Of a stretch of 34,339 bases of DNA, positions 8,401 through 34,339 are shown one piece after another. How positions within the stretch are numbered: position 1 is the first letter of the stretch; the number at the start of each line of letters is the position of its first letter. This DNA is from a virus. The stretch is from IMG/VR virus record IMGVR_UViG_3300025869_000045, positions 1 through 34,339 of that record. One strand, 5' to 3'. The notes under the pieces were generated by a model. The model made no database searches. It saw only the letters and a program-made list of their open reading frames with translations, and had not been told where the DNA came from. A program made the translations under genes and the position numbers.

Positions 8401-8629
8401 CTCTTAACTTTGCACACTCGGTGAGAAACCAACTTATTTCGTGTACAAGTTCGGGTGACATCTCAGTTTTAGCATGAGCAATATCACCGGCAATATAAAT
8501 GAGGGAATCCTCAATTTTATCTTCTTTAACTTTTTTTAGGAATTTTTTGAATACTATTCTGTATTCCTTATGTCTTTGTAGATTTCTAATGTGTAAATCT
8601 GCAAGATGGTAAACTTTATTTATAACCAT
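5471..8629 (-). CDS. Single-chain Mre11-Rad50 (SbcD-SbcC / T4 gp47-gp46) fusion
   Basis: One uninterrupted 1052-codon frame holds both subunits of the recombination nuclease. Residues 1-330 are an Mre11/SbcD phosphoesterase: DLH (Asp11, His13), GD (Asp49), GNHD (Asn84, His85), His154 and GDIH (His190), the expected metal-binding set. Residues 395 on are the Rad50/SbcC ATPase: P-loop APNASGKSS (406-414), a long charged coiled coil (about 570-890) with a central zinc-hook CDIC (Cys726, Cys729), an ABC signature around Ser964-Gly965, Walker B FLVIDE (990-995) and the H-loop His1027. In T4 these are two adjacent genes, 47 then 46; here they are joined in that order. The complex processes DNA ends for recombination-dependent replication. 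The gene overlaps the SGNH gene by 10 bases. Confidence 0.93.
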   Translation of the reverse strand: MVINKVYHLADLHIRNLQRHKEYRIVFKKFLKKVKEDKIEDSLIYIAGDIAHAKTEMSPELVHEISWFLTECAKLRETVLITGNHDCNLNNSHRLDVLTPIIENLGNDRIHYLRDTGVYPIHNLTFVVYSILDNKENWPKGDTVDGENTICLFHGPVNKAQTDIGYTVSSNSFQVDMFDGFDMAMLGDIHKRQTFGDGYEHIAYAGSMVQQNHGELLENHGYLLWDIPTRTFTEHHLHNDYGFLTVDVVDGKIPQWVYDEIDTKLPKYPRLRLRFTRTEASDMKRRITELKKLFKVAEVTVTRTDTIGQLKTNQKVNKNIVGNVKDETFQNQLIRDYLERQYLLEDEELDKIAEINSELNSHIDESDMMGNILWTPKEFQFSNMFSYGEDNLIRFDKAQGIMGIFAPNASGKSSMWDALSFCIYDKTSRTNVSKNIINNRKTTFHCKFNFEIDGIDYFIERKARYVRKATSVKVDVNFWRDNNGVIESLNGEQRKDTNKEIEKYLGKFEDFVLTALSLQGNNALFIDKSQSERKEILSQFIGVNIFDKLYQKAADENRDNATLIRKFKSDDFTTKLAEIDTDLKSNKNEYKLYEMNQKALRDEEEVLNKKIISLNEKIVKLNADSGVSIEELEKRLKLLETKRDTIQTNKKSTQDRITHREELQITLDEIVDKFDEEELEDGIGKLKDSKDKLRDIESTIDKINIKKESLYERKDHLDKHKYNEECDICMENSETILQQKEKVEADISHYQELFSDNDKTRLQLMLVIDSLKGYEDEWNNYIEAKNKEDKIDREISQLINKLSTIETEELRNKQQIAQQEQLIKEYYKNEKQIIKNKDIRTDIQSVREKLNVTKDDLRKVNTDVLKLNGKVSALQNQKETIEDRINEVKDLESQSRLFDFYLNALSKDGVSYELIEKALPMIEGEVNNILAQIVEFGMQLEIDGKNINAYLVYGDQRWSLEMCSGMERFISGLAIRVALINVCNLPRPNFLVIDEGFGTLDSENLQSLFMLFTYLKTQFDFVMVISHIDSMRDVVDGLIEIKKEKGFSNVKF

Positions 8630-9315
8630 TTATCTATAATATAATTTCCCCACATTTTGTGAGATTCTTTTGTTGGATGTTTTCTTTCATGAAATGTACC
8701 ATTATTATTATTTAAATAATAGTACATATCATCCATATCTATCTTTAAGTAATCTAATCCTAATTGTTCAGTATCTCTACCAAATTTATCAATTTTTGTT
8801 TTAGGTTCAGTTACGTTTTCGTATTTATAAAAAGCATTAAAAAAATAATAATCAATGCCATTAAGTTCACATATTGAAATCAATGATTGAATATAATTAA
8901 ATGTTCTAATATATGATGGTATTAATTCATTCTGATGTAATACAAATATGTCCTCAGTTGTTTTATCTTTATCATTATCTCCCCACTTATCATAACCAAC
9001 CCACAATCTTTCTTGTTGATACTCACTTCCTGTCCACCATTCAAATCTTGTTGGTGATGTCCAACCAATTATAAGTTTAAATTCATCAGACTCAACCCAA
9101 CCACTTTCTTCACTCCAAGTTTTATGAGTTGAAATCCATTGATTTATATCTCTCATAGTATTTCTAAAAATATAATCATTAGAAACACCAGCTGATGCAT
9201 TATTACAATCAATAAAACCTATTTCATCTGCAATTATTTTTGAAAACCTTTCGTTTTCTTTATTTTCTAATTCTGCTCCCCAAGTTACAGAATCTCCAAT
9301 AGAATATAATATCAT
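8620..9315 (-). CDS. SGNH/GDSL hydrolase-like protein
   Basis: This 231-residue protein starts MILYSIGDSVTWGAELE. GDSVTWG (7-13) matches block I of the SGNH family, with nucleophile Ser9. SAGVSNDYI (41-49) supplies the block II Gly43, and HPTKESHKMWG near the C-terminus resembles block V with His219. The middle segment IIGWTSPTRFEWW (82-94) is a form I associate with phage members of this group. The block III Asn is not obvious. SGNH enzymes remove or move acyl groups on sugars and lipids. It has no signal peptide, so an intracellular or virion-associated role is likely. It sits between the primase (4-base ATGA overlap) and the Mre11-Rad50 gene (10-base overlap). Its substrate cannot be read from the sequence. 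Confidence 0.7.
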   Translation of the reverse strand: MILYSIGDSVTWGAELENKENERFSKIIADEIGFIDCNNASAGVSNDYIFRNTMRDINQWISTHKTWSEESGWVESDEFKLIIGWTSPTRFEWWTGSEYQQERLWVGYDKWGDNDKDKTTEDIFVLHQNELIPSYIRTFNYIQSLISICELNGIDYYFFNAFYKYENVTEPKTKIDKFGRDTEQLGLDYLKIDMDDMYYYLNNNNGTFHERKHPTKESHKMWGNYIIDKWL

Positions 9316-17700: not shown

Positions 17701-19943
17701 AAATTATCTAATGAAAATTCAGATGATGAAATAAATTGACCTACTACTTCATTAGAGGTAACAGAGCCACTCGCTACTAAATCATCTAGTATCTGATAAC
17801 CAATATCATCTCCAACATCTAAAGTGAAGTTAGGAGTTAAAGGCTTACATTCTTTTGTTATATCATCTACAATTGTTATTTGGTCAATTATAGGAATGGA
17901 TTGTATTTTAGAAATCCATAATTTATCATTTCTACTTATTTGACTTGGAAGTGGTTCATAAAGTTTAAGAACCAATGCCTTTTCTTCATTTATCTTTACG
18001 TTTTTATTTCGTTCTTCATCAAATTTAAATTCAGATAAGGTTTCTGTATCAACTGCATATGTTGCAATTAATTCATTTTTACCATCACCCAAGTGTAAGT
18101 AATGAGATAAAAAAGGATTTGTTGGTTCATCAAATATAGTGTTATCTAATACAGAAACAAATGAGTTTCTTAAATCAGATATTACATTATCTCTCCTAAG
18201 TGTTAAATCTCCTTTATCAAATATTATATTTATTTTCTCATGTCTACCAAGTGTAACAGAATCTCCTTCTAAGTTATATGGTAAAAGTGAAAGTTGTATT
18301 TCTTCAATATCTCTATAACCTTTTGATTTAGTAGAAGATGCGTACATTTTCTTAAGAACATCTTCTACAATAAAGTTTGCTTTAGTAGTTGGTCCAAACT
18401 TTCCTAAATATTGATTTTTTTCTATCTTTCCACCAGCATATATTTCAATGTAATTTGTATTTACGGATTGCCAACTAATTTCAAATGGAACATTATATCC
18501 TTGAAAATCAGCTCCCTTAATTGTATTTGGGAAATTTATAATAGTAATATCAGGACCAGGTAAATATTCTTTATTAATAACATTAACATTTATTCTTATC
18601 GAATCACCACTACCATTTGATTTTGAAACTGGTTGTAAGTATATTGTATAATTACCTACTCCATTATAAAAATCAGATTTTGTTAATAATAAACTACCAC
18701 TTTTTGATAAACTTCTTGTTGTTTTACCTAAAGTATAAATTACTTCATCTGCATTACTACTTCTGTATGGTATCTTTACATCCTCTTTTGATGATATGTT
18801 AATTTCTACATTTGTTAAATCAACAACTAGTGATGGTTTAGATGGAGCACTTATTACAGTTATTTTAGAAGTTTTAATAGAAACAGATGTTTCTCCGAGC
18901 TGAAGTTCAACTCTCTTATCTAAACATTTGTTTGTCTTAGGTGAACGATTAGTTGGTTCTATTACAGAGTAAGTTATATCATGTGTTGTTTGAGATATAC
19001 CATTACTAAAAAAATCTACATATGGAATTTCTCCCTTAACACTCGGTTGATATTTAAGTAGTAAATCATCTTCCTCTAATAGTTCTCCTTTAGCACCCCA
19101 AGAAGTTGTATAGATTATATCATTATCGTTAGCTAACTCAGTACTAATTTTAATTGAGTATAATTCTTCTGCAGGAGTTTCAATTATTTCTTCACCAGCT
19201 TCAAATGTAAATGGTAAATCAACAATGAACGCAAGTCCAAAATTATTTATACTTTCTATATTTAGTAACTTACCATTTTTTTCTACATAAAAGGTATAGT
19301 TAACATAAACCACTTCTCCGAGTATAGGATTTGCTTTTACTAGTTCTTCTTCTATTTTATCAAATCCTAGTGGAATGCCATTACCAATTTTTATTTGTTC
19401 ATCTAATCCAATGACTTCAAAATCATCAAATACAAGTGGTTTTATATCTGAAGCTGTTGTTCCTTTTGTTGAATAAACTTTGTAAGTATCTTTAGATGTT
19501 TTGTTATTTGTCTTTACAGTATATACTCTAGGTGTTAGTAATTGTGGTCCTGAAAGTATTTCGTAAGTTGGAGTGTTACCTGCTGAATTTGGATTTCCTT
19601 CCATACCAGAGGATTCTATACCATTTATACAAATCTTTGCATTTTTTTCAGTAGAAGAAATATTTACTCTTAATGCCTGATAGTTTGCACCATAGGCCGT
19701 TTTTAGAAAATCATATGATTCTAATCCTGGTGTAGATATTACACCTGATGTAGAAACTTTAGTTCCATCTTTAGTTGTAGTAACAGGACCTTGAGCTTTT
19801 CCCGAACTTATTAGTGCTCTATCAGATGTGCCTCCACCAGATACAATTGGAATACCTTTGTTTTCAACAACTTCATCGGTAAATCCCTTATCAGTAGAAA
19901 TTCCCCTAACACGCTTTCTTCCATATGTGTTTTTCTCTGCCAT
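14718..19943 (-). CDS. Giant baseplate-like protein (gp7-like region plus LamG-like domain)
   Basis: This is the longest complete gene (1741 residues). The first 850 or so residues are mostly beta-type repeats separated by Ser-rich linkers. A helical block at about 900-1050 (SSDFILFFDMIGQHFDVIYSH, then NNLPYLLKTKGTKRAIHAAM and CYGVP) resembles large baseplate wedge proteins of T4-like marine phages. Residues about 1065-1240 form a concanavalin/LamG-like sandwich, ending with YIGGNTLTGSLDEFRLW, a typical LamG finish. A second helical block (about 1360-1450) and a Ser/Asp-rich tail follow. The TAATG overlap at 19943 couples it to the previous gene. It ends the baseplate operon, after gp25 and gp6, as T4 gene 7 follows gene 6. 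The gp7 equivalence is inference from position, size and the helical block; the LamG call is stronger. Confidence 0.75.
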   Translation of the reverse strand: MAEKNTYGRKRVRGISTDKGFTDEVVENKGIPIVSGGGTSDRALISSGKAQGPVTTTKDGTKVSTSGVISTPGLESYDFLKTAYGANYQALRVNISSTEKNAKICINGIESSGMEGNPNSAGNTPTYEILSGPQLLTPRVYTVKTNNKTSKDTYKVYSTKGTTASDIKPLVFDDFEVIGLDEQIKIGNGIPLGFDKIEEELVKANPILGEVVYVNYTFYVEKNGKLLNIESINNFGLAFIVDLPFTFEAGEEIIETPAEELYSIKISTELANDNDIIYTTSWGAKGELLEEDDLLLKYQPSVKGEIPYVDFFSNGISQTTHDITYSVIEPTNRSPKTNKCLDKRVELQLGETSVSIKTSKITVISAPSKPSLVVDLTNVEINISSKEDVKIPYRSSNADEVIYTLGKTTRSLSKSGSLLLTKSDFYNGVGNYTIYLQPVSKSNGSGDSIRINVNVINKEYLPGPDITIINFPNTIKGADFQGYNVPFEISWQSVNTNYIEIYAGGKIEKNQYLGKFGPTTKANFIVEDVLKKMYASSTKSKGYRDIEEIQLSLLPYNLEGDSVTLGRHEKINIIFDKGDLTLRRDNVISDLRNSFVSVLDNTIFDEPTNPFLSHYLHLGDGKNELIATYAVDTETLSEFKFDEERNKNVKINEEKALVLKLYEPLPSQISRNDKLWISKIQSIPIIDQITIVDDITKECKPLTPNFTLDVGDDIGYQILDDLVASGSVTSNEVVGQFISSSEFSLDNLDINFVTSSTQLNEDESGTYVESNENYEIDWKGFVKYSSAKERVANFFYKVQLIESYETKYNGLVSGSLIDFGSGTSTQITGSVTSSIAIQNESKRTLGKINNLKKGFDSFEKFLYTSSSIDGITYPGAGGNELSSSSDVSSWYNSLYENASTYDTTNSSRFVNNLPQHLQDDNNSSDFILFFDMIGQHFDVIYSHIKASSQSKKSEHKFERGINSELIYHMLESLGFDADMGVKSQLLWEYAFGKNSDGTQASEMSGKDRQQEIWRRILNNLPYLLKTKGTKRAIHAAMSCYGVPASLLTIMEFGGPQDVSSESATSDFTFEDRTSSINISGSSSIIVPWKEYSSTFPNAVEVRVNTNQQQDQQIISASNWSLDIIKNTGSLASVKLTVGEESASTAVTPLFNEEYTQIVVSRESGSTSDNFNLYVKEGFQGRIRNEVSTILTTTTKAWDSGSELYIGGNTLTGSLDEFRLWTSPLSESVVTNHTLLPDAIDGNHVSSSTDDLILRLDFEYPKDRNADTEIKNVSVINTYEPFVTASNFLSVSDYPYQYQPYERTVTAKVPQTGFSFGNKVRFETQTLESNLNYRSRATKKSYDQSPIDSNKLGLFFSPIKEINMDIMKSLGSFSIDDYIGDPSDDYKDSYTKLKNLRNYYFDRYNLNFQEYIQLVRYIDKSLFTTLESLIPSRAKTISGLLIEPHILERSKLELKPTTAENNQYSSEVNTQEDISITSDNHMILASVTSSQEVSLVGNTNTFNAEVTASDDVIVTSSYDVYESEISASDDINQSGFITVNSGSDMGGISISIDAQFTGSVQGAYDSTAYQQIGMGAESLSRLGFGLYGSGSHSIRTRLDKNNNFVKDRVKVFLLKESYLEDVPQNINSSDESLGREFVSITKFKQIVNILPFTGSDGLETTDPVVAGNIVQVTPLDGNFETHYSNVGDLTSGLENSFFKGSSQTSKTTLDGGSPIVTFTTNPNTLRVSDSGRGSGEPILEVD

Positions 19944-21679
19944 TATCTAAAAATCCTTGTATCTATTAGTATTTCTTCTGATGTAACTTCTCCATTTGGT
20001 CCTGTACCATATACAGTTGTAAGTTCTTGTCCACCCTCAACTGAATCATATTTTATATCAAGATTAGAACCTCCACCACCAATCGGAATATCGGATGCAC
20101 CACAATCTCCTAGTTCAACTATTTTTATATTTTTACCAAGGAATCCTAGCGGTGGTACAACCGAATCTTTCTGTGCACAAAATTGAATTGAATCACCTGG
20201 TCCCATTTCCTCACTTATCTCTAATCTATCACTATCGTTCATGTATGATACCTGTACACGATTCACTTGACCTAGTCCTTTATAATCATCTTGTATAAAT
20301 AAATTTGTTACTATATATTGTTTATAAATATTTTCAATTGGTCTTACTTTTGCATATTCTCGAATATCTCCATCAAATGTTATACTATCTTTTTGAGCTC
20401 TTATTTTTATTGAGTCATATTCTACTCCAACTTTAGATTGAGATACTCCATTTTCATCTATATAATTAATAGTACCTTCAAATGACCAAACATAATATAT
20501 TTTATTAACACTTGATATATCTTCATATTTACAAGAACCATCATCTATTGTAGCCAATGGATTGTAGTTTAAAGAAGTTGGGTCTGTACATCCTGATATT
20601 GATTCGTATCTACATGAACCATCATTTATATTTGCATTTGGATTGTAGTTTAAAGAAGTTGGGTCTGTACATCCATACACATCTCCTATTATTTCATCAG
20701 GTTCAGTTGTATCATATATTGATTCTGATGTTGTTGTTTTTAAAATAGTTTTAAGTTTATCAATTGTTATTTGTTGTTCCTTTGTTAGAATATTATTTTG
20801 TTGAACATCTCTTTTAGGTAAATAAAAATCAATACAAGAAATTATACTCTGCTCAATATCTCTTTGTAATTCTGATATTGATAAAGTAATACAACTTGTT
20901 TCATCTTTAATTGGTTTACCATAATTTATATCTGATATTTTCCAATTTCTGTTTTGTGAATAGTAAGTCATTGATTCAATAACTTTACTTCTAACTCTAT
21001 TGATGAATACTTCAAAATTTTCTATTTTAAATTCTTTTTGAATTAACTTAATATAGTTTTCACCATCAGTAATTTTTCCTTTTATACTTTTAAAATTAGA
21101 AAATATTTTTTCAAAATCTAAATTATTAACATAATCGGTAATATAATAAATTACATCATCTCTAAATGATTGATTATCTACAAAGTTTGAATATCTTTTT
21201 TCTAAATCTGTATTTAATTTAGTTGAACGATTTGGTAATATTCTTATTTCTGTTCGTGATGGTGATATTTCATGTATCCATAAATTGTTTCCATCTAAAG
21301 AATCTACTCCAGCTCTCCTATTTAATAAGGTTACTTGAGTTTTAAAAATACCATTAGAATATCCCGCCTCTCTTACAAGTTTTTCTATATCAACTATAAA
21401 TTCAGAAGTTCCATTCTTTTTGGTAGTTTCTAAACTTTCTGTTAGAATAAAGTAATCTTTTATATTTACATCATCTATACTAATGTATCTTGATAATTTT
21501 CCATCATCTCCTTGAGGTAGTTGGTTATCATTTGAATCATATAATATAAATTCAATCATATCAGAACACCCTAGTCCAAAGTTAGATTTAGATATTTCCT
21601 TTTCAAATATCTTTCTATCCTCAGTTTCTACCAAGTATCCTTTTCTATCAATTATATTTTTAAAATCCTGTATTGCCAT
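19943..21679 (-). CDS. Baseplate-operon virion protein with two GCTDP/DDGSC repeats
   Basis: This 578-residue protein begins MAIQDFKNIIDRKGYLVETE. Its N-terminal 200 residues read as a beta-rich structural domain, and residues about 200-300 are helical and charged. At about 335-385 two 21-residue units run GCTDPTSLNYNP, a short spacer and DDGSC or NDGSC, with a 27-residue period. This Cys-framed repeat is very common in secreted or surface proteins of marine Bacteroidetes and is probably disulfide-linked. The rest (about 390-578) is beta-type, with TVYGTGPNGEVTSEEILIDT near the end. TAATG overlaps link it to the genes on both sides (21679 and 19943), which argues for near-equal synthesis. Structural role likely; function unknown. 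Confidence 0.7.
   Translation of the reverse strand: MAIQDFKNIIDRKGYLVETEDRKIFEKEISKSNFGLGCSDMIEFILYDSNDNQLPQGDDGKLSRYISIDDVNIKDYFILTESLETTKKNGTSEFIVDIEKLVREAGYSNGIFKTQVTLLNRRAGVDSLDGNNLWIHEISPSRTEIRILPNRSTKLNTDLEKRYSNFVDNQSFRDDVIYYITDYVNNLDFEKIFSNFKSIKGKITDGENYIKLIQKEFKIENFEVFINRVRSKVIESMTYYSQNRNWKISDINYGKPIKDETSCITLSISELQRDIEQSIISCIDFYLPKRDVQQNNILTKEQQITIDKLKTILKTTTSESIYDTTEPDEIIGDVYGCTDPTSLNYNPNANINDGSCRYESISGCTDPTSLNYNPLATIDDGSCKYEDISSVNKIYYVWSFEGTINYIDENGVSQSKVGVEYDSIKIRAQKDSITFDGDIREYAKVRPIENIYKQYIVTNLFIQDDYKGLGQVNRVQVSYMNDSDRLEISEEMGPGDSIQFCAQKDSVVPPLGFLGKNIKIVELGDCGASDIPIGGGGSNLDIKYDSVEGGQELTTVYGTGPNGEVTSEEILIDTRIFR
20531..20674 (-). repeat. Two-copy Cys-framed repeat, 81-base period
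   Basis: Copies at 20612-20674 and 20531-20593 each encode 21 residues from Gly-Cys-Thr-Asp-Pro to Asp-Gly-Ser-Cys. The middle of each copy (the TDPTSLNYNP part) is identical in DNA, while the DDG/NDG parts differ, suggesting recent duplication or local gene conversion. Confidence 0.85.
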
Positions 21680-27633: not shown

Positions 27634-28872
27634 TTACTCCGTATAATTAAGTGTGGAAAGAAAATCATTTAATTTTGATTTTATAGAATTAAAATCAGAA
27701 CGATTATTTGGGCCCATTGCAGTTGGTCCAGCTGGAGTTGAGAATATTTGTGCATTAATTGTATCGATGAGTTCTTCCATTAATTCAACCAATACTTGTC
27801 CTCTTACCAAAGGTTGTTCTGTTTCTTCTGTATTAAGGTATATTTCTCCAGTACCCCCTAATATTGTTACATTGTTATCATTTGTAGTAATTAATACATC
27901 TCCATTGAAGTCCATATCAGCTCCATCCAATCCATTATCTATTGTAAGTTTACCATCTGATATAAAAGAGTAATTTCCCTTTGAGTAAAATAACATTTCA
28001 GAATCTTTTGATGATAATATAATTCTACCACTATTGATTAAGGTTTGGTCTGTTCCCTTTAGTTCGGGTTCTTCTGCATATATTGGTTCTGTTTCTAATG
28101 GTGTATCAACCGTACCAGGAGTAAATTCTAATAAATGTTCTCCACTTGATAATACAATAATTGAACCATCATCAACAATATCTTCAAAAGTAGGTTCTCC
28201 TATTTTTAAATCTTTTAATGATTTATCTCCTTGTCTATTTCTTATAATAATTGTTGGGGCTAAAACATTATCTACATTATTGTAACCACTAAAACGAATT
28301 GATTGACCAAATCTTGATTGAATTAGTTTATCACCCTCATAAAATTGAAGAGGATTTATTTTAGTTTGTTCAAAATATTCGTTTTCAATAGAAGATTCTT
28401 CCGCTGATGAATTTGGTGTTCCTGTTTCTGATGTTTCTTTATAATCTGAAGTAGTATTACTATCTTCAGTTTCAGGAAATAAAGTTTTGTTTACATCTTC
28501 AATAGCATTTCCTATATTAATTTGTGGACTTGATACTCTCCTATATACTTGTTGATTTGATGCAAGGGTTAAAACTTCAACAGTTTCTCCTATTATGGGT
28601 AAATCTAAATTTAAATAATCTAATGGAGGAGTAAATGTTAAGTCCTGTATATTAGATGTTATATCGGTTAGTAATTTTATTTTACAAGAACCAATTATTG
28701 ATGTATTTCTTGTATCAATTTTATCTTTATTTTCAATATCAAAATCGAAATCAAATATAGAATCAGAATCTACATTAGTAACTACATCTAAAACAATTCC
28801 AAATTCAGGTTTTTTTAATGCAGTATTAGAACTTTGTCGTGAAAATCTGCTTGAACTTCCTAACCTACTCAT
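27634..28872 (-). CDS. gp5: Baseplate hub/spike protein, T4 gp5-like without lysozyme domain
   Basis: This 412-residue protein has an N-terminal beta domain (about 20-115; FGIVLDVVTNV ... LPIIGETVEVLTL) consistent with the OB fold of gp5/VgrG-type hubs. A low-complexity Thr/Ser/Glu linker (about 130-165) follows, then RFGQSIRFSGYNN with PTIIIRNRQGD, the entry to the spike. The last part is a repetitive beta structure (SGRIILSSKDSEMLFYSKG, DGKLTIDNG, GDVLITTNDNNVTILGG), as in the trimeric beta-helix of the membrane-piercing spike, then a helical tail. The T4 lysozyme insert is absent, so local wall digestion would come from elsewhere. It overlaps the 138-residue gene by 8 bases. Confidence 0.8.
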   Translation of the reverse strand: MSRLGSSSRFSRQSSNTALKKPEFGIVLDVVTNVDSDSIFDFDFDIENKDKIDTRNTSIIGSCKIKLLTDITSNIQDLTFTPPLDYLNLDLPIIGETVEVLTLASNQQVYRRVSSPQINIGNAIEDVNKTLFPETEDSNTTSDYKETSETGTPNSSAEESSIENEYFEQTKINPLQFYEGDKLIQSRFGQSIRFSGYNNVDNVLAPTIIIRNRQGDKSLKDLKIGEPTFEDIVDDGSIIVLSSGEHLLEFTPGTVDTPLETEPIYAEEPELKGTDQTLINSGRIILSSKDSEMLFYSKGNYSFISDGKLTIDNGLDGADMDFNGDVLITTNDNNVTILGGTGEIYLNTEETEQPLVRGQVLVELMEELIDTINAQIFSTPAGPTAMGPNNRSDFNSIKSKLNDFLSTLNYTE

Positions 28873-29281
28873 CTACACCTACCCTTTGTTTGAGTTCCTC
28901 TACCTCATTGGTAAGTTCATCAACTTTTATATCCTGTTCATCTGCAACTTGTGTAATGGTCTCATCGAGTTGTTTTAATAATTGTTCTTTTTCATCATCA
29001 GAAAGAAATCCACTATCTCCTTCTGCTTTTTGTGATGCTCCAATAATTCTTTGTGCAATTGCTGCCATCTTGATTAGTGAATCATCGTTCTTAACTGATG
29101 TATCTACTAAATCTTTTATGATTGGCCCAATTACTGCCATATCCCCTGCATGTCTAATTACTTTTTTCATTTCAGCAATTAGCTCAGAGATTCTTTGTTT
29201 CTTGTTTTGTTGATTCTCATAGATATCTTTAAACAATCCACTAAGGTTCTTACCAGGAAATAATTCAAAATCTGTACTCAT
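28865..29281 (-). CDS. Helical protein of unknown function heading the gp5 unit
   Basis: This 138-residue protein begins MSTDFELFPGKNLSGLFKDI and is predicted almost entirely helical. It has hydrophobic-charged repeats through the middle (ELIAEMKKVIRHAGDMAVIG, then PIIKDLVDTSVKNDDSLIKM) and a C-terminal acidic coiled coil (EQLLKQLDETITQVADEQ). It has no Cys, no signal and no membrane segment. A TATATTTATAT core lies just upstream and the gene overlaps the gp5-like gene by 8 bases, so it is co-expressed with the hub. It could be a small structural part or an assembly chaperone. I recognise no named family. Confidence 0.65.
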   Translation of the reverse strand: MSTDFELFPGKNLSGLFKDIYENQQNKKQRISELIAEMKKVIRHAGDMAVIGPIIKDLVDTSVKNDDSLIKMAAIAQRIIGASQKAEGDSGFLSDDEKEQLLKQLDETITQVADEQDIKVDELTNEVEELKQRVGVDE

Positions 29282-29301
29282 GATTATACCATATTAGTTG
29301 T

Positions 29302-29313
29302 ATATAAATATAG
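29302..29313 (-). promoter_or_regulatory. Candidate late promoter core
   Basis: The minus strand reads CTATATTTATAT, ending 20 bases before the ATG at 29281. It sits immediately after the terminator of the holin-like gene. Confidence 0.55.
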
Positions 29314-29319
29314 TAAATG

Positions 29320-29348
29320 AAAAAACCTCACTTTTTAGGGTGAGGTTT
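29320..29348 (-). terminator. Rho-independent terminator after the small membrane protein gene
   Basis: On the minus strand AAACCTCAC (29340-29348) pairs perfectly with GTGAGGTTT (29323-29331) across an 8-base loop, followed by further T residues. It starts 36 bases after the stop at 29384. Confidence 0.9.
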
Positions 29349-29383
29349 AATCTTGAACGCGTTAGTAGAATTATTTCTAATTC

Positions 29384-29614
29384 TTACTTTTTAATAATGT
29401 GATACAGTACAAAAGCACCTACAAGTCCTAACAGACCTTCAGCACTCAAACTTCCTAGAATAGCCATAATGTTATCAACTACTGATACTTCTGGCCAGAA
29501 AGGGATGTCTGCACCTTTGAATAGTACTTCAAATACTACTCCTAAGGCGATTATGCTAATACCAATCTTTGTTAATTCGTCAGCCCAAGAGCCTATTTTT
29601 TTCAAAAATTCCAT
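29384..29614 (-). CDS. Small two-helix membrane protein, holin candidate
   Basis: This 76-residue protein has an amphipathic N-terminus (MEFLKKIGSWADELTKI), a hydrophobic segment at about 17-32 (GISIIALGVVFEVLF), a polar loop with Pro-Phe-Trp-Pro (about 38-41), a mildly hydrophobic stretch at about 47-55 (DNIMAILGS), a second hydrophobic segment at about 59-73 (EGLLGLVGAFVLYHI) and a Lys-Lys end. Size and topology fit a class II holin. It forms its own unit, with AAAGGAAA before the ATG and a strong terminator after, as expected for a gene timed separately. No endolysin is directly adjacent; the lysozyme-like gene is 3 kb away at 32637-33221. Another small membrane function is possible. Confidence 0.55.
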   Translation of the reverse strand: MEFLKKIGSWADELTKIGISIIALGVVFEVLFKGADIPFWPEVSVVDNIMAILGSLSAEGLLGLVGAFVLYHIIKK

Positions 29615-29774
29615 ATTGTTTTTCCTTTTGTTTTAATTAAATGTGAATAACTTTTCCATCTTGCAAAACTAAGGGATATCCACTCAATAACTATGGTATA
29701 TATGATAGAAAAAATTACAATATATATTCTATACCCATTTTAAGAAGTATAATAGGTGTTTATATATTTATGTA

Positions 29775-29805
29775 CAAAAAAACCCAACCGAAATTCGTTG
29801 GGTTT
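29775..29805 (-). terminator. Rho-independent terminator after the carbamoyltransferase gene
   Basis: On the minus strand AAACCCAAC (29797-29805) pairs perfectly with GTTGGGTTT (29780-29788) across an 8-base loop, followed by a run of T. It lies about 60 bases after the stop at 29867. The remaining non-coding DNA to 29615 is AT-rich and shows no ORF or further clear hairpin. Confidence 0.9.
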
Positions 29806-29866
29806 CTATTCCTAGCCTCTTTATTATACGACAAGGGTTCTTTAAGATAAATAGAGAAAAAATTAA

Positions 29867-31585
29867 TTAAACTATCTTTTTTTTAATTACAAGGTTATGA
29901 AGTATAAGAGTATCCATTTCACAATTTAAGAAAGTTTTAATTGCATCCTCTGGTGTAAGAACCATTGTTTGGTCTTTTAAATTAAATGAAGTATTAATAA
30001 CAATAGGATATTCGTTTATTGTTTCTAATTTTTCTAACAAAGAAAACATATATCTATGTTGATTTTTATTTAGAGTTTGTATTCTAGCCGAATTATCGAT
30101 ATGTGTTATTGCTGGTAAGTTTTTTGCATGGTCTTGTTTTACCTTTACTACCTGATTCATATAAGGTACAGTATCTTGGTAATTAAAATAACTAGTTGAA
30201 GAAGATTCTTTTACGATTGGAGCAAAAGGTCTAAACCCTTCTCTTTTTTTAATCATCTTGTTTAAACGAGATTTCATTTGAGGGTCTCTTGGATTTGCTA
30301 ATATAGAACGATTACCTAATGCACGTGCACCAAACTCCATCCTACCTTGAAACCATCCTATAACATTACCGTCTTTAATTTCTTCAGCAACAATATCAAT
30401 AATTTGCTCATAAAGTTTTGTTTCTATCCAAATTTTATCTTTATATTTTTCTGTTGCTTCAAAAATTTCATTTTTTGAATACATTGGACCAAGATATGGG
30501 TTTGAATTTTTTATTCTTACAGTATCGTTTGATTTATAATAATAATCAAGTCCACATCCAATAGCAGAACCAGCATCCGATGGAGCTGGTGGGATGTATA
30601 GATTTTTGAAGTTTGTTCTTTTTAATATCTTACCATTTGCAGTTCCATTATATGCACAACCCCCACTTAAACATAAGTTATCAGATTTTGTTTTATTGTG
30701 TAATTCGTTTAATAATCTAAAAAACAGTTTTTCGTAATTGTATTGTAATGATGCTGCTAAATCCTTGTGATGTTGTTCTAATGGTTCATCTGGTAATCTG
30801 TTTGGAAATTCAAATAATTTTCCTAACTTTTCATTGAACATATGTGTATTAGAATACTCATATGTAAAGTACTCCATTTTTAATTCAAAAGTACCATCTT
30901 CTTTTTCTGTATATAATTCTTTAAATAATTTATTATATTTTTTACAATCTCCATATGGTGCTAAACCCATTATTTTATACTCACCCTCATTTGGTTTAAA
31001 CCCAAGAAAGGCAGTAAATGTTGAATATAACATTCCAAGGGAATGTGGAAAATTTACACTATTTAATTTTTTTATTTTATTTTCAGTTCCTATTCCTAAA
31101 ACAGTTGTTTCCCATTCACCTACACCATCAACTGAGAGGATTGCAGATTCGTTAAAGTTTGAAGTGTAATATGAATATGCTAAATGTGATTGGTGGTGGT
31201 CAGTATAATGTATTTTTGTATTTTTACCACAAAGATTTTTTAATTGTGTTTGAAGAGTTTTATAAGCCTCTTGATTTTTAATTAAAATATTATTTTTTTT
31301 ATTTAAAAACTCATACCATTTTTTAGGTTTTTTTTCAGTACTTACTTTTATTCTATCTAATTTATTTTGTGGGTTTTCGTAAAAACAAATAGCGTTTAAA
31401 GTATCTGGTGTTACTTTGTATGTGTTCATTAACCACTTTATAGTATTAATTGGAAATCTAGAATCATGTTTGATACCAGTGAATCTTTCTTCTTCACATG
31501 CACCCAAAACATTTCCATCTTTAATTAATGCAGCTGCACTATCATGATAACCACAACTTATTCCTAAAATATAACCGTTACTCAT
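29867..31585 (-). CDS. Carbamoyltransferase, NodU/CmcH/TobZ family
   Basis: This 572-residue protein has the full O-carbamoyltransferase layout. The N-terminal Kae1-like domain shows GYHDSAAAL (12-20, His14), EEERFTGIKHD (31-41), the metal-site DHHQSHLA (129-136) and SVDGVGEWET (151-160), then NEGEYKIMGLAPYGD. The central part has LSGGCAYNG and PPAPSDAGSAIGCG. The C-terminal YrdC-like part has GWFQGRMEFGARALGNRSI, then FRPFAPIV. The family makes carbamoyl-adenylate from carbamoyl phosphate and ATP and moves the carbamoyl group to a hydroxyl on a sugar, an antibiotic or, in some phages, 5-hydroxymethylcytosine in DNA. Length is normal. It follows the sigma-factor gene by 2 bases and ends the unit 33221-29867. 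The acceptor cannot be told from sequence. Confidence 0.9.
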   Translation of the reverse strand: MSNGYILGISCGYHDSAAALIKDGNVLGACEEERFTGIKHDSRFPINTIKWLMNTYKVTPDTLNAICFYENPQNKLDRIKVSTEKKPKKWYEFLNKKNNILIKNQEAYKTLQTQLKNLCGKNTKIHYTDHHQSHLAYSYYTSNFNESAILSVDGVGEWETTVLGIGTENKIKKLNSVNFPHSLGMLYSTFTAFLGFKPNEGEYKIMGLAPYGDCKKYNKLFKELYTEKEDGTFELKMEYFTYEYSNTHMFNEKLGKLFEFPNRLPDEPLEQHHKDLAASLQYNYEKLFFRLLNELHNKTKSDNLCLSGGCAYNGTANGKILKRTNFKNLYIPPAPSDAGSAIGCGLDYYYKSNDTVRIKNSNPYLGPMYSKNEIFEATEKYKDKIWIETKLYEQIIDIVAEEIKDGNVIGWFQGRMEFGARALGNRSILANPRDPQMKSRLNKMIKKREGFRPFAPIVKESSSTSYFNYQDTVPYMNQVVKVKQDHAKNLPAITHIDNSARIQTLNKNQHRYMFSLLEKLETINEYPIVINTSFNLKDQTMVLTPEDAIKTFLNCEMDTLILHNLVIKKKIV

Positions 31586-31587
31586 TT

Positions 31588-32358
31588 TTACAAATATTCA
31601 TTATCTATATATGGATTTGTATCATCCTTTTTATCTTCTTCTTCCCAAAATCTAGGCTTTGGTTTGTTGATAATTTCACCATGTTCTAAAAAATCATTTA
31701 ATAATTTCTTTTGATGTTTTTTCATCACATTTACAACCTTAGTAATATAATGAGTTTTACAATCTGTCATTTCTCTGATAAGTAAATATAAATGTTTTTT
31801 ATTAAAGTTTTCTATGTGTTCACTTCTACGAAATAATTCAAGTATAGAATCTGCAATTTGTAAATCTCGTTTTTTAGTAAAAACAAAGTTTAAGTTTTCA
31901 TCCCAATACTTTAACATTATATTTTTAAACTCATAAAACTCATTATCTCGTTCTTCTTTAACAAAATCGTTTTCTGGGTTCCATGTTTGTGGCATTTGTG
32001 ATAGAAGATTGTTTTGTTTCCATCGTTTAAAGTTACCATTGTTTTTTAAAATCAAATGATTTTTTGCAATAATAGTAAAATAAGAAAAAGCTCTACCCTT
32101 ACCTTCTTGAAACATATGCATCTTTTGTACCATAATAGATACTACTTCCGTTTGTACGTCTATTTTTGGTACATCAAAATAAGTAAACTTAAATGTATTC
32201 ATTACATTTTCTGCTAATTTTTCAAAAGGATATTTAATTCTTTCCTCATAAATTTTAGACCGGATAACCGAATCATCGCAGTTATTATACTCTATGATTG
32301 CTTCTTGTGCAGGTGTTCCAAAATATATCTTGGATTTTTTTCTTCTAGGTTTTGGCAT
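31588..32358 (-). CDS. gp55: T4 gp55-like late-transcription sigma factor
   Basis: This 256-residue protein begins MPKPRRKKSKIYFGTPAQEA and carries the pattern seen in late sigma factors of T4-like marine phages: IYEERIKYPFEKLAENVMNT (36-55), FKFTYFD, TEVVSIMVQKMHMFQEGKG (about 69-87), and RAFSYFTIIAKNHLILKNNG (about 88-107). These correspond to the core-binding and -10-reading parts of sigma region 2. The C-terminal half (about 160-225) is helical, and the last 30 residues are polar and acidic. In T4, gp55 with gp33 and the sliding clamp directs RNA polymerase to late promoters. The gene lies between the small TM protein (1-base gap) and the carbamoyltransferase (2-base gap). The repeated TATATTTATAT sites before virion units are its natural candidate targets. 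Confidence 0.8.
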   Translation of the reverse strand: MPKPRRKKSKIYFGTPAQEAIIEYNNCDDSVIRSKIYEERIKYPFEKLAENVMNTFKFTYFDVPKIDVQTEVVSIMVQKMHMFQEGKGRAFSYFTIIAKNHLILKNNGNFKRWKQNNLLSQMPQTWNPENDFVKEERDNEFYEFKNIMLKYWDENLNFVFTKKRDLQIADSILELFRRSEHIENFNKKHLYLLIREMTDCKTHYITKVVNVMKKHQKKLLNDFLEHGEIINKPKPRFWEEEDKKDDTNPYIDNEYL

Positions 32359-32359
32359 A

Positions 32360-32635
32360 TTATATTTCGTTATTGAGGGTTTTTACTATTTTTTTGATTT
32401 CATCAAAAGTTACTCCAACTTCATCATCTTTTTCAAAAGCCTCTCGTTTATCTAATTTTCTCATATTATCTAGAGCATCTGATACTTTATTTCTTGTAGA
32501 GTTGATTGTATTAATTAATCTATCTTCAAGTTGTTCATTTTGTTTTAATAAGTTTCTAACACCTATTAACAAAATAATATTGAGTATTACAGAAACTCCT
32601 ATAATAATATTATAGGTAGTAAGTAGTTCTATCAT
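32360..32635 (-). CDS. Small membrane-anchored coiled-coil protein
   Basis: This 91-residue protein begins MIELLTTYNIIIGVSVILNI: one N-terminal membrane helix (about 7-27), then a charged helix (RNLLKQNEQLEDRLINTINS) with heptad spacing and an acidic end that includes DDEVGVTFDEIKKIV. The DDEVGV.F motif is one I recall in small proteins of marine T4-like phages, with no assigned function. The topology (short N-terminus, single helix, coiled coil outside) would fit an inner-membrane spanin subunit. It also lies 1 base after the lysozyme-like gene, but no outer-membrane partner with a lipobox is in view. Unknown function; the lysis link is inference. Confidence 0.6.
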   Translation of the reverse strand: MIELLTTYNIIIGVSVILNIILLIGVRNLLKQNEQLEDRLINTINSTRNKVSDALDNMRKLDKREAFEKDDEVGVTFDEIKKIVKTLNNEI

Positions 32636-32636
32636 G

Positions 32637-33221
32637 TTATTTTAAATTTAATGCATATCCACTAAAGTTGGTTAAGTACGAAGTAAGTTTTGTACCATTA
32701 CCATCTTTAAATTGTTTTCCTTTTTTAAAGTATCGTTTTACATTACCAGGTCCACCAAGATGTGCAGCTGCTAATATACCACTTTCTGTTATTTCTATTC
32801 CATCAACTATAACACCTGAGTATTGGTTAATATAAGATTGTAAAATCTTTTTATTGTGTGAAAGTAAATCTAACATTGCCATTTCTTGTATATGTGGTGA
32901 GTTTAAGAATTCTTTTTTTGATATATCGTAACCAAGATTCTTTAAAGTTCTTTTACCGAATTGGTATTTTCCCATATAACCCCAACCATTTACAACATCG
33001 TATCTGTTTGAGGATTCTCTCATTCCTATTGCATTTAGAAACATTTCAGTTTCATTAATTTCAATAGATACAGGTTCTAGTTTTATTTCAATAGGTTGAA
33101 TTGGTCTACTTTCTAATTCAGTAACCATTTTTATTTTAGGTTTTATATAATGTGTTGTGAATCCAACTAAACTAATTGTTGCAATCATTGATATGATTAC
33201 TGTTAATATTTGTTTTTTCAT
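32637..33221 (-). CDS. Lysozyme-like endolysin with N-terminal signal anchor
   Basis: This 194-residue protein has a membrane helix at about 4-24 (QILTVIISMIATISLVGF) preceded by two Lys, a 30-residue spacer, and a lysozyme-superfamily domain (about 57-194). This domain shows AIGMRESSNRYDVVNGWGY (64-82) with probable catalytic Glu69, then MGKYQFGKRTLKNLGY, AMLDLLSHN, and AAAHLGGPGNVKRYF (151-165). This arrangement of a short Glu motif, GKYQFG and the AxHxGG loop is typical of lysozyme-like and lytic transglycosylase folds. It would cut peptidoglycan glycan strands after export; the uncleaved anchor recalls signal-arrest-release endolysins. AAGGAGAGG gives a strong ribosome site, and a TTTTTCGTATATTT promoter element lies upstream. 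It heads the unit with the small TM protein, sigma factor and carbamoyltransferase. Confidence 0.75.
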   Translation of the reverse strand: MKKQILTVIISMIATISLVGFTTHYIKPKIKMVTELESRPIQPIEIKLEPVSIEINETEMFLNAIGMRESSNRYDVVNGWGYMGKYQFGKRTLKNLGYDISKKEFLNSPHIQEMAMLDLLSHNKKILQSYINQYSGVIVDGIEITESGILAAAHLGGPGNVKRYFKKGKQFKDGNGTKLTSYLTNFSGYALNLK

Positions 33222-33245
33222 AGATACCTCTCCTTGATTTACTAT

Positions 33246-33263
33246 GTAAATATACGAAAAAAA
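33246..33263 (-). promoter_or_regulatory. Candidate host-type promoter for the lysozyme-sigma unit
   Basis: The minus strand reads TTTTTTTCGTATATTTAC, ending 24 bases before the ATG at 33221. It shares TTTTTCGTATATTT with the primase promoter site at 10276-10290 and fits the TAnnTTT part of the Bacteroidetes -7 element. Confidence 0.5.
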
Positions 33264-33294
33264 TTCGATATATCCTAATTTTTAAAGAGTTTTT

Positions 33295-33600
33295 TTAACA
33301 ATCTCCTATTGGTCCGTAATATAACCCACTAAAAACATCTTCTCCAAGCTCAGATTCTTCTAATACATCTGTTTCTAATATTTCATTTAATGCATCGACA
33401 TCAGCATCAGTAATTCTTTCTTTATTTTCTGCAACTACTTCTTCCCATAGGTCCATATTAAAATCAATTTTATCTAATATTTCTTTTCTAGTAAAAATCT
33501 TTTTTTCTATTAGTAAATCCATTAAACTCTGAGTCACTAAACTTTGAGTAAGTAATTTACTTTTTAGTTTTTTTATTGTTATCTTTGATATTGAGTTCAT
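33295..33600 (-). CDS. Small acidic protein of unknown function (101 residues)
   Basis: The product begins MNSISKITIKKLKSKLLTQS. The basic N-terminal third (to about 45) predicts two or three helices (TQSLMDLLIEKKIFTRKEIL). The rest is acidic (VDALNEILETDVLEESELGE) and ends FSGLYYGPIGDC. The first part has the look of small phage proteins with a helix-turn-helix-like shape, but I cannot name a family. AAAGGA lies 9 bases before the ATG at 33600, which supports this start although it makes a 44-base overlap with the end of the upstream gene. It is the last gene of its unit; no hairpin terminator is visible before the next promoter. Confidence 0.6.
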   Translation of the reverse strand: MNSISKITIKKLKSKLLTQSLVTQSLMDLLIEKKIFTRKEILDKIDFNMDLWEEVVAENKERITDADVDALNEILETDVLEESELGEDVFSGLYYGPIGDC

Positions 33601-33826
33601 TTAGTAATTCCTTTAATTCGTTTTTATCATCTTCCCCATAAACTAAATCACCAAATGATTTTTTTATAGTGGTACTACTATAACCCATTGCTGTAGCCAA
33701 TCGAATACAAACAATTTTATATTCGTTAATATCCATATCATCTGGCACATCTAATTCAATTTTACTTGCTTCTCTATTAAGTTCTATAAAGTCCTTGTCT
33801 GTATATGTAAATATAAGTTTACCCAT
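33557..33826 (-). CDS. Small protein of unknown function (89 residues)
   Basis: The product begins MGKLIFTYTDKDFIELNREA. It has a strand-like start, an acidic turn (DVPDDMDINEYKI) and two helices around CIRLATAMGYSSTTIKKSFG, then a charged tail ending in Lys repeats (NIKDNNKKTKK). ATAMGYSSTTIKKSFG could be a small helix-turn-helix, but no recognised domain is complete. It follows the peptide deformylase gene by 12 bases and overlaps the next gene by 44 bases. Function unknown. Confidence 0.6.
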   Translation of the reverse strand: MGKLIFTYTDKDFIELNREASKIELDVPDDMDINEYKIVCIRLATAMGYSSTTIKKSFGDLVYGEDDKNELKELLNELNIKDNNKKTKK

Positions 33827-33838
33827 TTTTAAATTAAA

Positions 33839-34339
33839 TTATAAGATTTCACAACCAACTGAAAGTAGTGGTTGTGCCTTTTTGTATTTCATAAATTCAG
33901 TAGAACCATCTTGTAATTTTACCATTACTCTTTCGTTTCTACCATACTTTTTTTCTCTTCGTACTGTTGTTGTATATCTTCTTGAAGAATCTGTTATAAG
34001 AATTCCATTAAGATGGTCTATCTCGTGCTGAGCACATACACATTCTAATAACCCCTCATCGGCGTAAAATTCTTCTGAATCTTTCCAAGTTTCTCCATCT
34101 TTTTTATCGGATGAAAATATAACAGTTCCTAAATTATCACATTCTACTGTAAATGATTTATGTCTTAAAGTTTGAACAGGTTTTTTCATTGTTTTATCCA
34201 AGGATAAACATTGTTCTACATATACAACTGTTTCTTTTGAAGTTTCTGTAACTCTTGGATTAACTAATATCAATGGTTCTTTTACATTTACTATACATAC
34301 TCTATCCGTTAAACCTATTTGGTTTGCAGATAATCCTAA
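33839..34339 (-). CDS. def: Peptide deformylase, N-terminus beyond the window edge
   Basis: The frame is open to the right edge, giving 166 residues without the true start. Reading from base 34339 it begins LGLSANQIGLTDRVCIVNVK, which contains deformylase motif 1 (GLSANQIG). Motif 2 is EQCLSLDK with the metal-ligand Cys at visible residue 44, and motif 3 is QHEIDHLNG with His105, Glu106 and His109. All three catalytic motifs are therefore present; motif 2 has Gln in place of the usual Gly of EGCLS. The enzyme removes the formyl group from new proteins. Phage copies are known from marine T4-like phages. A shorter start (TTG at 34273) would cut off motif 1 and is rejected. It begins the leftward unit that continues with two small unknown genes. 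Confidence 0.9.
   Translation of the reverse strand, partial: LGLSANQIGLTDRVCIVNVKEPLILVNPRVTETSKETVVYVEQCLSLDKTMKKPVQTLRHKSFTVECDNLGTVIFSSDKKDGETWKDSEEFYADEGLLECVCAQHEIDHLNGILITDSSRRYTTTVRREKKYGRNERVMVKLQDGSTEFMKYKKAQPLLSVGCEIL

What the first reader, a model, noticed from the sequence alone, without database searches (positions are those of the whole stretch)
29867..31585. Phage carbamoyltransferase as possible DNA hypermodification enzyme
All family motifs are intact. Some phage carbamoyltransferases are known to convert 5-hydroxymethylcytosine in DNA to 5-carbamoyloxymethylcytosine, while others act on sugars. The gene is co-transcribed with lysis and late sigma genes rather than with nucleotide metabolism, which leaves either acceptor open.
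Basis: partly seen in the sequence, partly recalled or inferred. Interest (0 to 1): 0.5.

Follow-up and report, generated by a model that had tools for sequence, protein, structure and literature searches.

The report
Phage carbamoyltransferase, probably not DNA-modifying
A virus, probably of aquatic bacteria, carries an intact gene for an enzyme that attaches carbamoyl groups to hydroxyls; its family tree and key residues look more like the versions that decorate sugars and small molecules than like the one version known to decorate DNA, although related viruses carry a candidate enzyme that could make the DNA base such a modifier would need.

Summary
The gene is real: window 29867-31585, MINUS strand, 572 aa, both Pfam carbamoyltransferase halves (2e-75, 1e-64), a model matching NovN, GdmN, VtdB and TobZ over nearly its whole length (Z 33-35), dN/dS 0.16-0.19, 80 viral loci retrieved. 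The DNA-hypermodification reading is weakened, not excluded. The validated 5hmC carbamoyltransferase and four relatives form a separate clade (100/100) with TobZ R423 replaced by T (5 of 5) and G421 by C (4 of 5); in the 3 annotated phage relatives a dCMP-type hydroxymethylase-like gene lies within 1.5 kb. The window enzyme is 23% identical to the validated one, keeps W/G/R, and groups (99/94) with cellular enzymes often linked to SxtJ-family genes; but an AU test does not reject a sister relation to the DNA clade (p 0.444, 0.219). That paralogue lies 135-153 kb away, next to an asparagine-synthase/PLP-enzyme cluster, and persists in three relatives whose carbamoyltransferase slot is empty. 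Best guess for the acceptor: a sugar hydroxyl (0.55); 5-hydroxymethylated cytosine about 0.2.

The parts
29867..31585 (-). O-carbamoyltransferase gene, 572 aa (P0001)
   Evidence: Frame; Pfam N and C domains; PHROG 1601; PDB relatives NovN, GdmN, 7xb6, TobZ; fold match Z 33-35; dN/dS 0.16-0.19
30308..30355 (-). Codons of W411, G424 and R426, the equivalents of TobZ W408, G421 and R423
   Evidence: Positions named in PMC8670742; W/G/R in the window enzyme, T at 426 in 5 of 5 rows of the DNA clade
29778..29807 (-). Possible intrinsic terminator hairpin after the gene
   Evidence: 11-pair stem, 8-nt loop, U-rich side; weak against shuffles (z -1.60)
31588..32358 (-). Sigma-like gene (identity unproven), directly upstream
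   Evidence: Found upstream in 68 of 68 loci with more than 1.2 kb upstream of the carbamoyltransferase; no family or PDB match
32360..32635 (-). Small membrane-type protein of the same gene run
   Evidence: Frame; homologue in 75 of 80 loci; membrane nature read from the sequence
32637..33221 (-). Transglycosylase-like (possible lysis or tail lysozyme) gene
   Evidence: Weak Pfam matches, PHROG tail lysozyme 6.4e-11; homologue in 62 of 80 loci
28865..29281 (-). 138-aa protein that borders the slot on the downstream side
   Evidence: Homologue in 80 of 80 loci; directly follows the sigma-like gene in relatives without the carbamoyltransferase

Best explanation
The gene encodes a working O-carbamoyltransferase that, by analogy with TobZ and GdmN, makes carbamoyl-adenylate from carbamoyl phosphate and ATP and passes the carbamoyl group to an acceptor hydroxyl (this class: about 0.97). 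The acceptor is most likely a sugar hydroxyl, on a nucleotide sugar or on a host-surface or virion glycan, rather than 5-hydroxymethylcytosine (acceptor: about 0.55, the figure given as confidence). It is cargo: carried in one slot of one branch of these large phages and missing from the slot in others. Shown: family, fold, intact conserved residues, purifying selection, clade, gene order, empty slots. Inferred: activity, acceptor, timing and benefit (for example changing a surface that competing phages bind).
For: Clade: outside the validated 5hmC clade (100/100), with cellular enzymes at 99/94. Residues: W/G/R in 12 of 12 clade rows of the first alignment and, of 53 rows, W/G/R in 50 and L/G/R in 3; DNA clade T at R423 in 5 of 5. 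Cellular relatives (80 loci kept): SxtJ-family neighbour in up to 55 of 80, DUF5989-size proteins in 23 and SGNH-like ones in 15 of 80, glycosyltransferase-like in 10 and epimerase-like in 9 of 80. Relative G001 has sugar genes: NAD-dependent epimerases, dTDP-sugar 3,5-epimerase, DegT aminotransferase, UDP-glucose/GDP-mannose dehydrogenase, glycosyltransferases, and an rfaE-II-like nucleotidyltransferase (below cut-off) about 3.5 kb upstream of the gene, seen in 19 of 19 loci with more than 6.2 kb upstream. Precedent: WapO-type carbamoylation of LPS heptose (PMC8005017, passages). The dCMP-type paralogue persists where the slot is empty.
Against: AU tests do not reject a sister relation to the DNA clade. 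Relatives do have a candidate hydroxymethylase. Sugar genes are common in large phages and those in G001 are not in the same operon; the nucleotidyltransferase is not near the gene in G009; no SIS_2 (GmhA-type) gene in 6 of 6 relatives, so no full heptose pathway. No characterised sugar-acting enzyme groups tightly with the clade; NovN, GdmN and VtdB act on antibiotics (sugar or macrocycle hydroxyls; recalled).
Confidence: 0.55

Rival explanations
1. It carbamoylates 5-hydroxymethylcytosine, as nucleotide or in DNA, made by the dCMP-type thymidylate-synthase paralogue, giving 5-carbamoyloxymethylcytosine by a lineage other than the validated one and protecting the phage from restriction.
For: Candidate hydroxymethylase in all three relatives of at least 275 kb that have the gene: Cys-Met-Asp in 46 of 46, best PDB match CMP 5-hydroxymethylase 4e-6, set between gp41- and gp43-like genes. 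No T4 beta-glucosyltransferase match in G001 (weak, since T4 gp42 also found nothing in that search). A validated enzyme of the same family does this reaction (PMC8670742, sections read). Sister relation to that clade not rejected.
Against: Different clade; W/G/R instead of x/C/T; K446 where L027 of the DNA clade has N. The gene is 135-153 kb from the paralogue, while in 3 of 3 annotated phages of the DNA clade the two are within 1.5 kb. The paralogue is kept in G004, G012 and G014 with the slot empty and no carbamoyltransferase elsewhere on those contigs. Its direct neighbours are an asparagine-synthase-like and a PLP-fold enzyme, a rival decoration route.
Confidence: 0.2
2. It carbamoylates a hydroxyl of another small molecule or of a protein, for example a host metabolite or a signal.
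For: Best structural matches act on antibiotics (NovN, GdmN, VtdB, TobZ); the tree leaves the nearest characterised enzyme open.
Against: No polyketide, peptide or aminoglycoside pathway was noticed among the G001 genes read, though not all were searched.
Confidence: 0.15
3. The gene is a decaying or inactive passenger.
For: The slot is empty in G004, G012, G014 and in Flavobacterium phage immuto; one locus, L096, has a stop inside the matched frame.
Against: dN/dS 0.16-0.19 in 4 of 4 pairs; conserved residues invariant in 53 of 53 rows.
Confidence: 0.03

Closest known systems
Cellular carbamoyltransferases linked to SxtJ-family genes (for example Planctomyces sp. SH-PL62 WP_068422843, Pantoea sp. 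At-9b WP_013512652)
   Same: Sister group in the tree (99/94); 37-43% identity in the 80 cellular loci kept; same W/G/R (71 of 76, G/R in 76 of 76)
   Different: No SxtJ relative in the window or G001; function of these cellular enzymes unknown to me; phage operon instead of a surface-polysaccharide-like context
Validated 5-hydroxymethylcytosine carbamoyltransferase (PMC8670742) with Xp15, Acinetobacter phage and Bacteroides phage relatives
   Same: Same enzyme family and two-domain layout; phage genes; a dCMP-type synthase paralogue exists in the wider genome
   Different: 23% identity; separate 100/100 clade; R423T and mostly G421C there, W/G/R here; hydroxymethylase adjacent there, 135-153 kb away here
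NovN, GdmN, VtdB (7xb6) and TobZ, antibiotic O-carbamoyltransferases
   Same: Full-length fold, Z 33-35, 28-32% identity; E 4e-84 to NovN by sequence
   Different: Not a tight clade with them
'Nol-like' carbamoyltransferases of cyanophages and pelagiphages
   Same: Same family (PHROG 1601), also in T4-like aquatic phages; acceptor not stated in what I saw (PMC3037559, two passages)
   Different: 24.6-36% identity in the 60 of 142 records listed; other branches of the tree

Membership tests
Carbam_trans (NodU/TobZ-type) O-carbamoyltransferases | N- and C-terminal carbamoyltransferase domains, full length | tested here: met
   Pfam 254.9 and 217.7 bits against cut-offs 24 and 27
Carbam_trans (NodU/TobZ-type) O-carbamoyltransferases | Two-domain fold of TobZ/GdmN/NovN | tested here: met
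   Model pLDDT 83.6; Z 33.0-34.6 over 525-554 residues
Carbam_trans (NodU/TobZ-type) O-carbamoyltransferases | Carbamoyl transfer activity | not testable with these tools
   No assay
5hmC carbamoyltransferase (PMC8670742) | Place in the clade of the validated enzyme | tested here: not met
   Separated by a 100/100 branch; a sister relation is not rejected (AU p 0.444 and 0.219)
5hmC carbamoyltransferase (PMC8670742) | Changed residues at TobZ W408/G421/R423 as seen in that clade (my reading of the paper's association) | tested here: not met
   W/G/R here
5hmC carbamoyltransferase (PMC8670742) | dCMP-hydroxymethylase gene in the same genome | tested here: inconclusive
   None in the 34-kb window; candidate in three near-complete relatives with the gene; window genome incomplete
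5hmC carbamoyltransferase (PMC8670742) | Activity on 5hmC or 5hm-dCTP | not testable with these tools
   No assay
NodU (NCBIfam NF041651) | Curated equivalog score | tested here: not met
   159.4 bits against cut-off 1000
SxtJ-linked cellular carbamoyltransferases | Grouping in the tree | tested here: met
   Sister at 99/94; not nested inside
SxtJ-linked cellular carbamoyltransferases | SxtJ-family gene beside it | tested here: not met
   Profile from 55 loci plus the reference finds nothing at E 1 in the window or the G001 frames

The most novel reading that the evidence does not exclude
A second, independent lineage of carbamoyltransferase decorates 5-hydroxymethylated cytosine in large phages of aquatic bacteria, working with a MilA-like deoxycytidylate hydroxymethylase, as an alternative to or on top of a hypermodification made by the asparagine-synthase-like and PLP-fold enzymes encoded next to that hydroxymethylase.
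Probability: 0.15. Interest if true: 0.65.

Novelty: new member of a known kind. Interest (0 to 1): 0.3.

Why it matters
Carbamoyltransferases are common in aquatic phages and are filed as 'Nol-like' without a known acceptor; one validated enzyme modifies DNA. Separating its clade by tree and residues from the rest argues against labelling every phage carbamoyltransferase a DNA modifier, and the empty-slot comparison names phages with and without the gene in which its effect can be measured. If the DNA reading nevertheless held, the residue association drawn from the validated clade would not be a general rule.

Tried and rejected
Led nowhere or rejected: (1) 'No hydroxymethylase' as a quick refutation: a dCMP-type paralogue turned up in relatives. 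(2) Co-occurrence over all contigs: the two genes lie 135-153 kb apart in the three genomes that have both, so shorter contigs cannot be expected to show both; the tallies 3 of 20 and 1 of 26 are mostly uninformative, and PF00303 misses the paralogue in G009 although tblastn finds it. (3) A heptose-carbamoylation model: no SIS_2 gene in 6 of 6, nucleotidyltransferase absent near the gene in G009, rfaE-type scores below cut-offs. (4) dCTPase-type PF08761: 0 of 6, but the control rang in only 1 of 14 genomes and over the cut-off in none, so this says little; T4 gp56, beta-glucosyltransferase and gp42 found nothing in G001 by phmmer. (5) First AlphaFold run with 7 similar rows failed, pLDDT 44. 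(6) First genome-contig scan gave no relative because its patterns were clade-specific; the broader second one worked. (7) Sigma identity: no support. (8) Octamer TATAAATA: 16 in the window, 10.3 expected, 6 of 100 shuffles reach 16, none inside 29867-33221; sigma-70-like sites 28 against 35.4 expected. (9) A neighbour cluster first taken as DUF5989 was mixed with SGNH-like proteins and is given split. (10) A regular expression for the Asp177 count failed (0 of 46) and was replaced by an alignment count. (11) Papers: searches showed no paper in the listings that names this clade; subscription papers are not held.

Full report
What is there. Window 29867-31585 holds one open frame of 572 codons on the minus strand. 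It matches both halves of the Pfam carbamoyltransferase family and PHROG 1601. By sequence the nearest solved structures are NovN (4e-84), GdmN, 7xb6 (VtdB) and TobZ. A model from 54 aligned proteins has mean pLDDT 83.6 and aligns with these enzymes over 525-554 residues at Z 33-35, well above TsaD/Kae1-type proteins at 21.5 and less. The window is a whole viral record of 34,339 bases, a probable fragment.

Relatives. The first scan of viral contigs gave 6 loci; the second confirmed 99 and kept 80, 60-100% identical (loci not dereplicated). The longest contig is G001, 275,970 bases, 95% identical in DNA over window 28880-34339 and 77-89% in other matching blocks. dN/dS between the window gene and four relatives is 0.16-0.19 (proportion of changed synonymous sites 0.44-0.55 in three of the pairs).

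Neighbourhood. A homologue of the sigma-like gene lies upstream in 68 of 68 loci with more than 1.2 kb of upstream sequence; homologues of the 138-aa protein and of the next (baseplate-type) protein follow in 80 of 80. A hairpin follows the stop codon. In G004, G012 and G014 the sigma-like gene is followed directly by the 138-aa homologue, and those contigs (169, 177 and 221 kb) have no match to the carbamoyltransferase at all. The same order without the gene is seen in the cultured Flavobacterium phage immuto, and no Flavobacterium phage is among the 142 records that match the enzyme (141 counted under the names shown; the remaining one is Acinetobacter, H49).

Test 1, tree. With 37 rows, the validated 5hmC carbamoyltransferase (sequence from PMC8670742), Xp15, Acinetobacter phage MD-2021a, Bacteroides phage BF503P4 and L027 form one side of a 100/100 branch of length 2.67; the window clade (12 rows, 100/100) is on the other side with antibiotic and cellular enzymes, the deeper order unresolved. 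With 55 rows, 30 of them newly fetched cellular relatives, the window clade groups with the cellular ones at 99/94. Against my reading: holding the DNA clade and the window clade together is not rejected (AU p 0.444; 0.219), as the DNA branch is very long.

Test 2, residues. The paper names TobZ W408, G421 and R423 as the three positions with the highest differential conservation. They map to window W411, G424 and R426 (offset +3, inferred from the motif spacing and from TobZ K443, M473 and S530; no TobZ alignment was printed). Window clade: W/G/R in 12 of 12 rows; among 53 rows W/G/R in 50, L/G/R in 3. DNA clade: no W in 5 of 5, C at 421 in 4 of 5, T at 423 in 5 of 5. The 20 other rows of that alignment all keep G and R, and W in 14, so R to T is the sharper mark. 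Cellular relatives: G and R in 76 of 76, W in 71. The paper shows association, not that these residues set the acceptor.

Test 3, hydroxymethylase. In Xp15, the Acinetobacter phage and the Bacteroides phage a thymidylate-synthase-type gene lies within 1.5 kb of the carbamoyltransferase and has Cys146-Thr147-Asp177. In the window group the synthase near the gene is a ThyA homologue (16 of 19 loci with more than 6.2 kb upstream), canonical Cys-His-Asn in G001. But G001 also has a 232-aa paralogue at 186572-187270; all 46 loci found for it have Cys-Met-Asp. Its best solved relative is CMP 5-hydroxymethylase (4e-6); an archaeal synthase model also matches, below its cut-off. Around it lie ribonucleotide reductase and thioredoxin genes, and among 35 loci with more than 3.5 kb downstream an asparagine-synthase-like protein in 31, a PLP-fold enzyme in 35, a methylase-like protein in 33 and DNA polymerase in 32. 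It is 144, 135 and 153 kb from the carbamoyltransferase in G001, G007 and G009. Of 20 paralogue-bearing contigs searched, 3 match the carbamoyltransferase, and these are the 3 of at least 275 kb. In the six contigs where the slot can be seen (all chosen because they have the paralogue) the carbamoyltransferase is present in three and missing in three. So the paralogue does not need it. In T4-like phages the decorating enzyme also varies while the hydroxymethylase stays (recalled), so this is not decisive.

Acceptor. Up to 55 of the 80 loci have an SxtJ-family neighbour, 23 a DUF5989-size one, 15 an SGNH-like one; 10 have a glycosyltransferase-like and 9 an epimerase-like neighbour (these two names come from reading the sequences). 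G001 encodes epimerases, a dTDP-sugar 3,5-epimerase, a DegT aminotransferase, a UDP-glucose/GDP-mannose dehydrogenase and glycosyltransferases. WapO-type carbamoylation of LPS heptose is described in PMC8005017 (passages read), and a carbamoyltransferase is listed among mutated genes 'potentially involved in phage infection' for phage KIL3b in PMC7216180 (one table passage read). I put a sugar hydroxyl first at 0.55, 5-hydroxymethylcytosine at 0.2, another small molecule or protein at 0.15.

Host. Unknown. Pointers to Bacteroidota: sigma-gene relatives in Flavobacterium phages (4 of the 6 records matched; the others are a Microcystis phage and an unnamed phage) and a SusC/TonB-type protein in G001.

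Verdict. An intact, selected member of a known enzyme family, carried as cargo in one branch of large phages. DNA hypermodification stays testable but is not the favoured reading. Papers: of PMC8670742 I read sections 11, 12, 13, 31 and part 1 of section 10; of PMC3037559, PMC8005017 and PMC7216180 only the passages found; the rest only as search listings.

Noticed in passing
G001 (IMGVR_UViG_3300047157_000197) 186572-195828; homologues in L106-L151: Candidate cytosine hypermodification cluster: MilA-like synthase paralogue with dCMP-type Asp, asparagine-synthase-like protein, PLP-fold enzyme and two methylase-like proteins around DNA polymerase, widely kept in 46 related loci. Function untested.
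   Followed up: partly
G001 196051-198759 (L021:16051-18756): 902-aa SusC/TonB-dependent-receptor-like protein in a phage contig: CarboxypepD_reg-like, plug and barrel domains all over their Pfam cut-offs.
   Followed up: no
window 8620-9315 (-) and G001 5188, 23206, 245736, 263384-273580: Several proteins with an SGNH/GDSL-like G-D/C-S motif, about ten by a motif search of which one is a large structural-type protein; Pfam support weak or absent.
   Followed up: partly
G001 254616-256232 and 32267-33214: Phage-borne chaperonin (Cpn60, 4.6e-73) and UV-endonuclease UvdE (6.8e-66).
   Followed up: no
L180 (Synechococcus phage S-SSM7) 2938-5505: A carbamoyltransferase of another branch also lies two genes from the late sigma gene gp55; coincidence or shared slot not resolved.
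   Followed up: no
window 19943-21679 (-): Protein with two near-identical GCTDPTSLNYNP...DGSC repeats, a type I associate from memory with Bacteroidota surface proteins.
   Followed up: no
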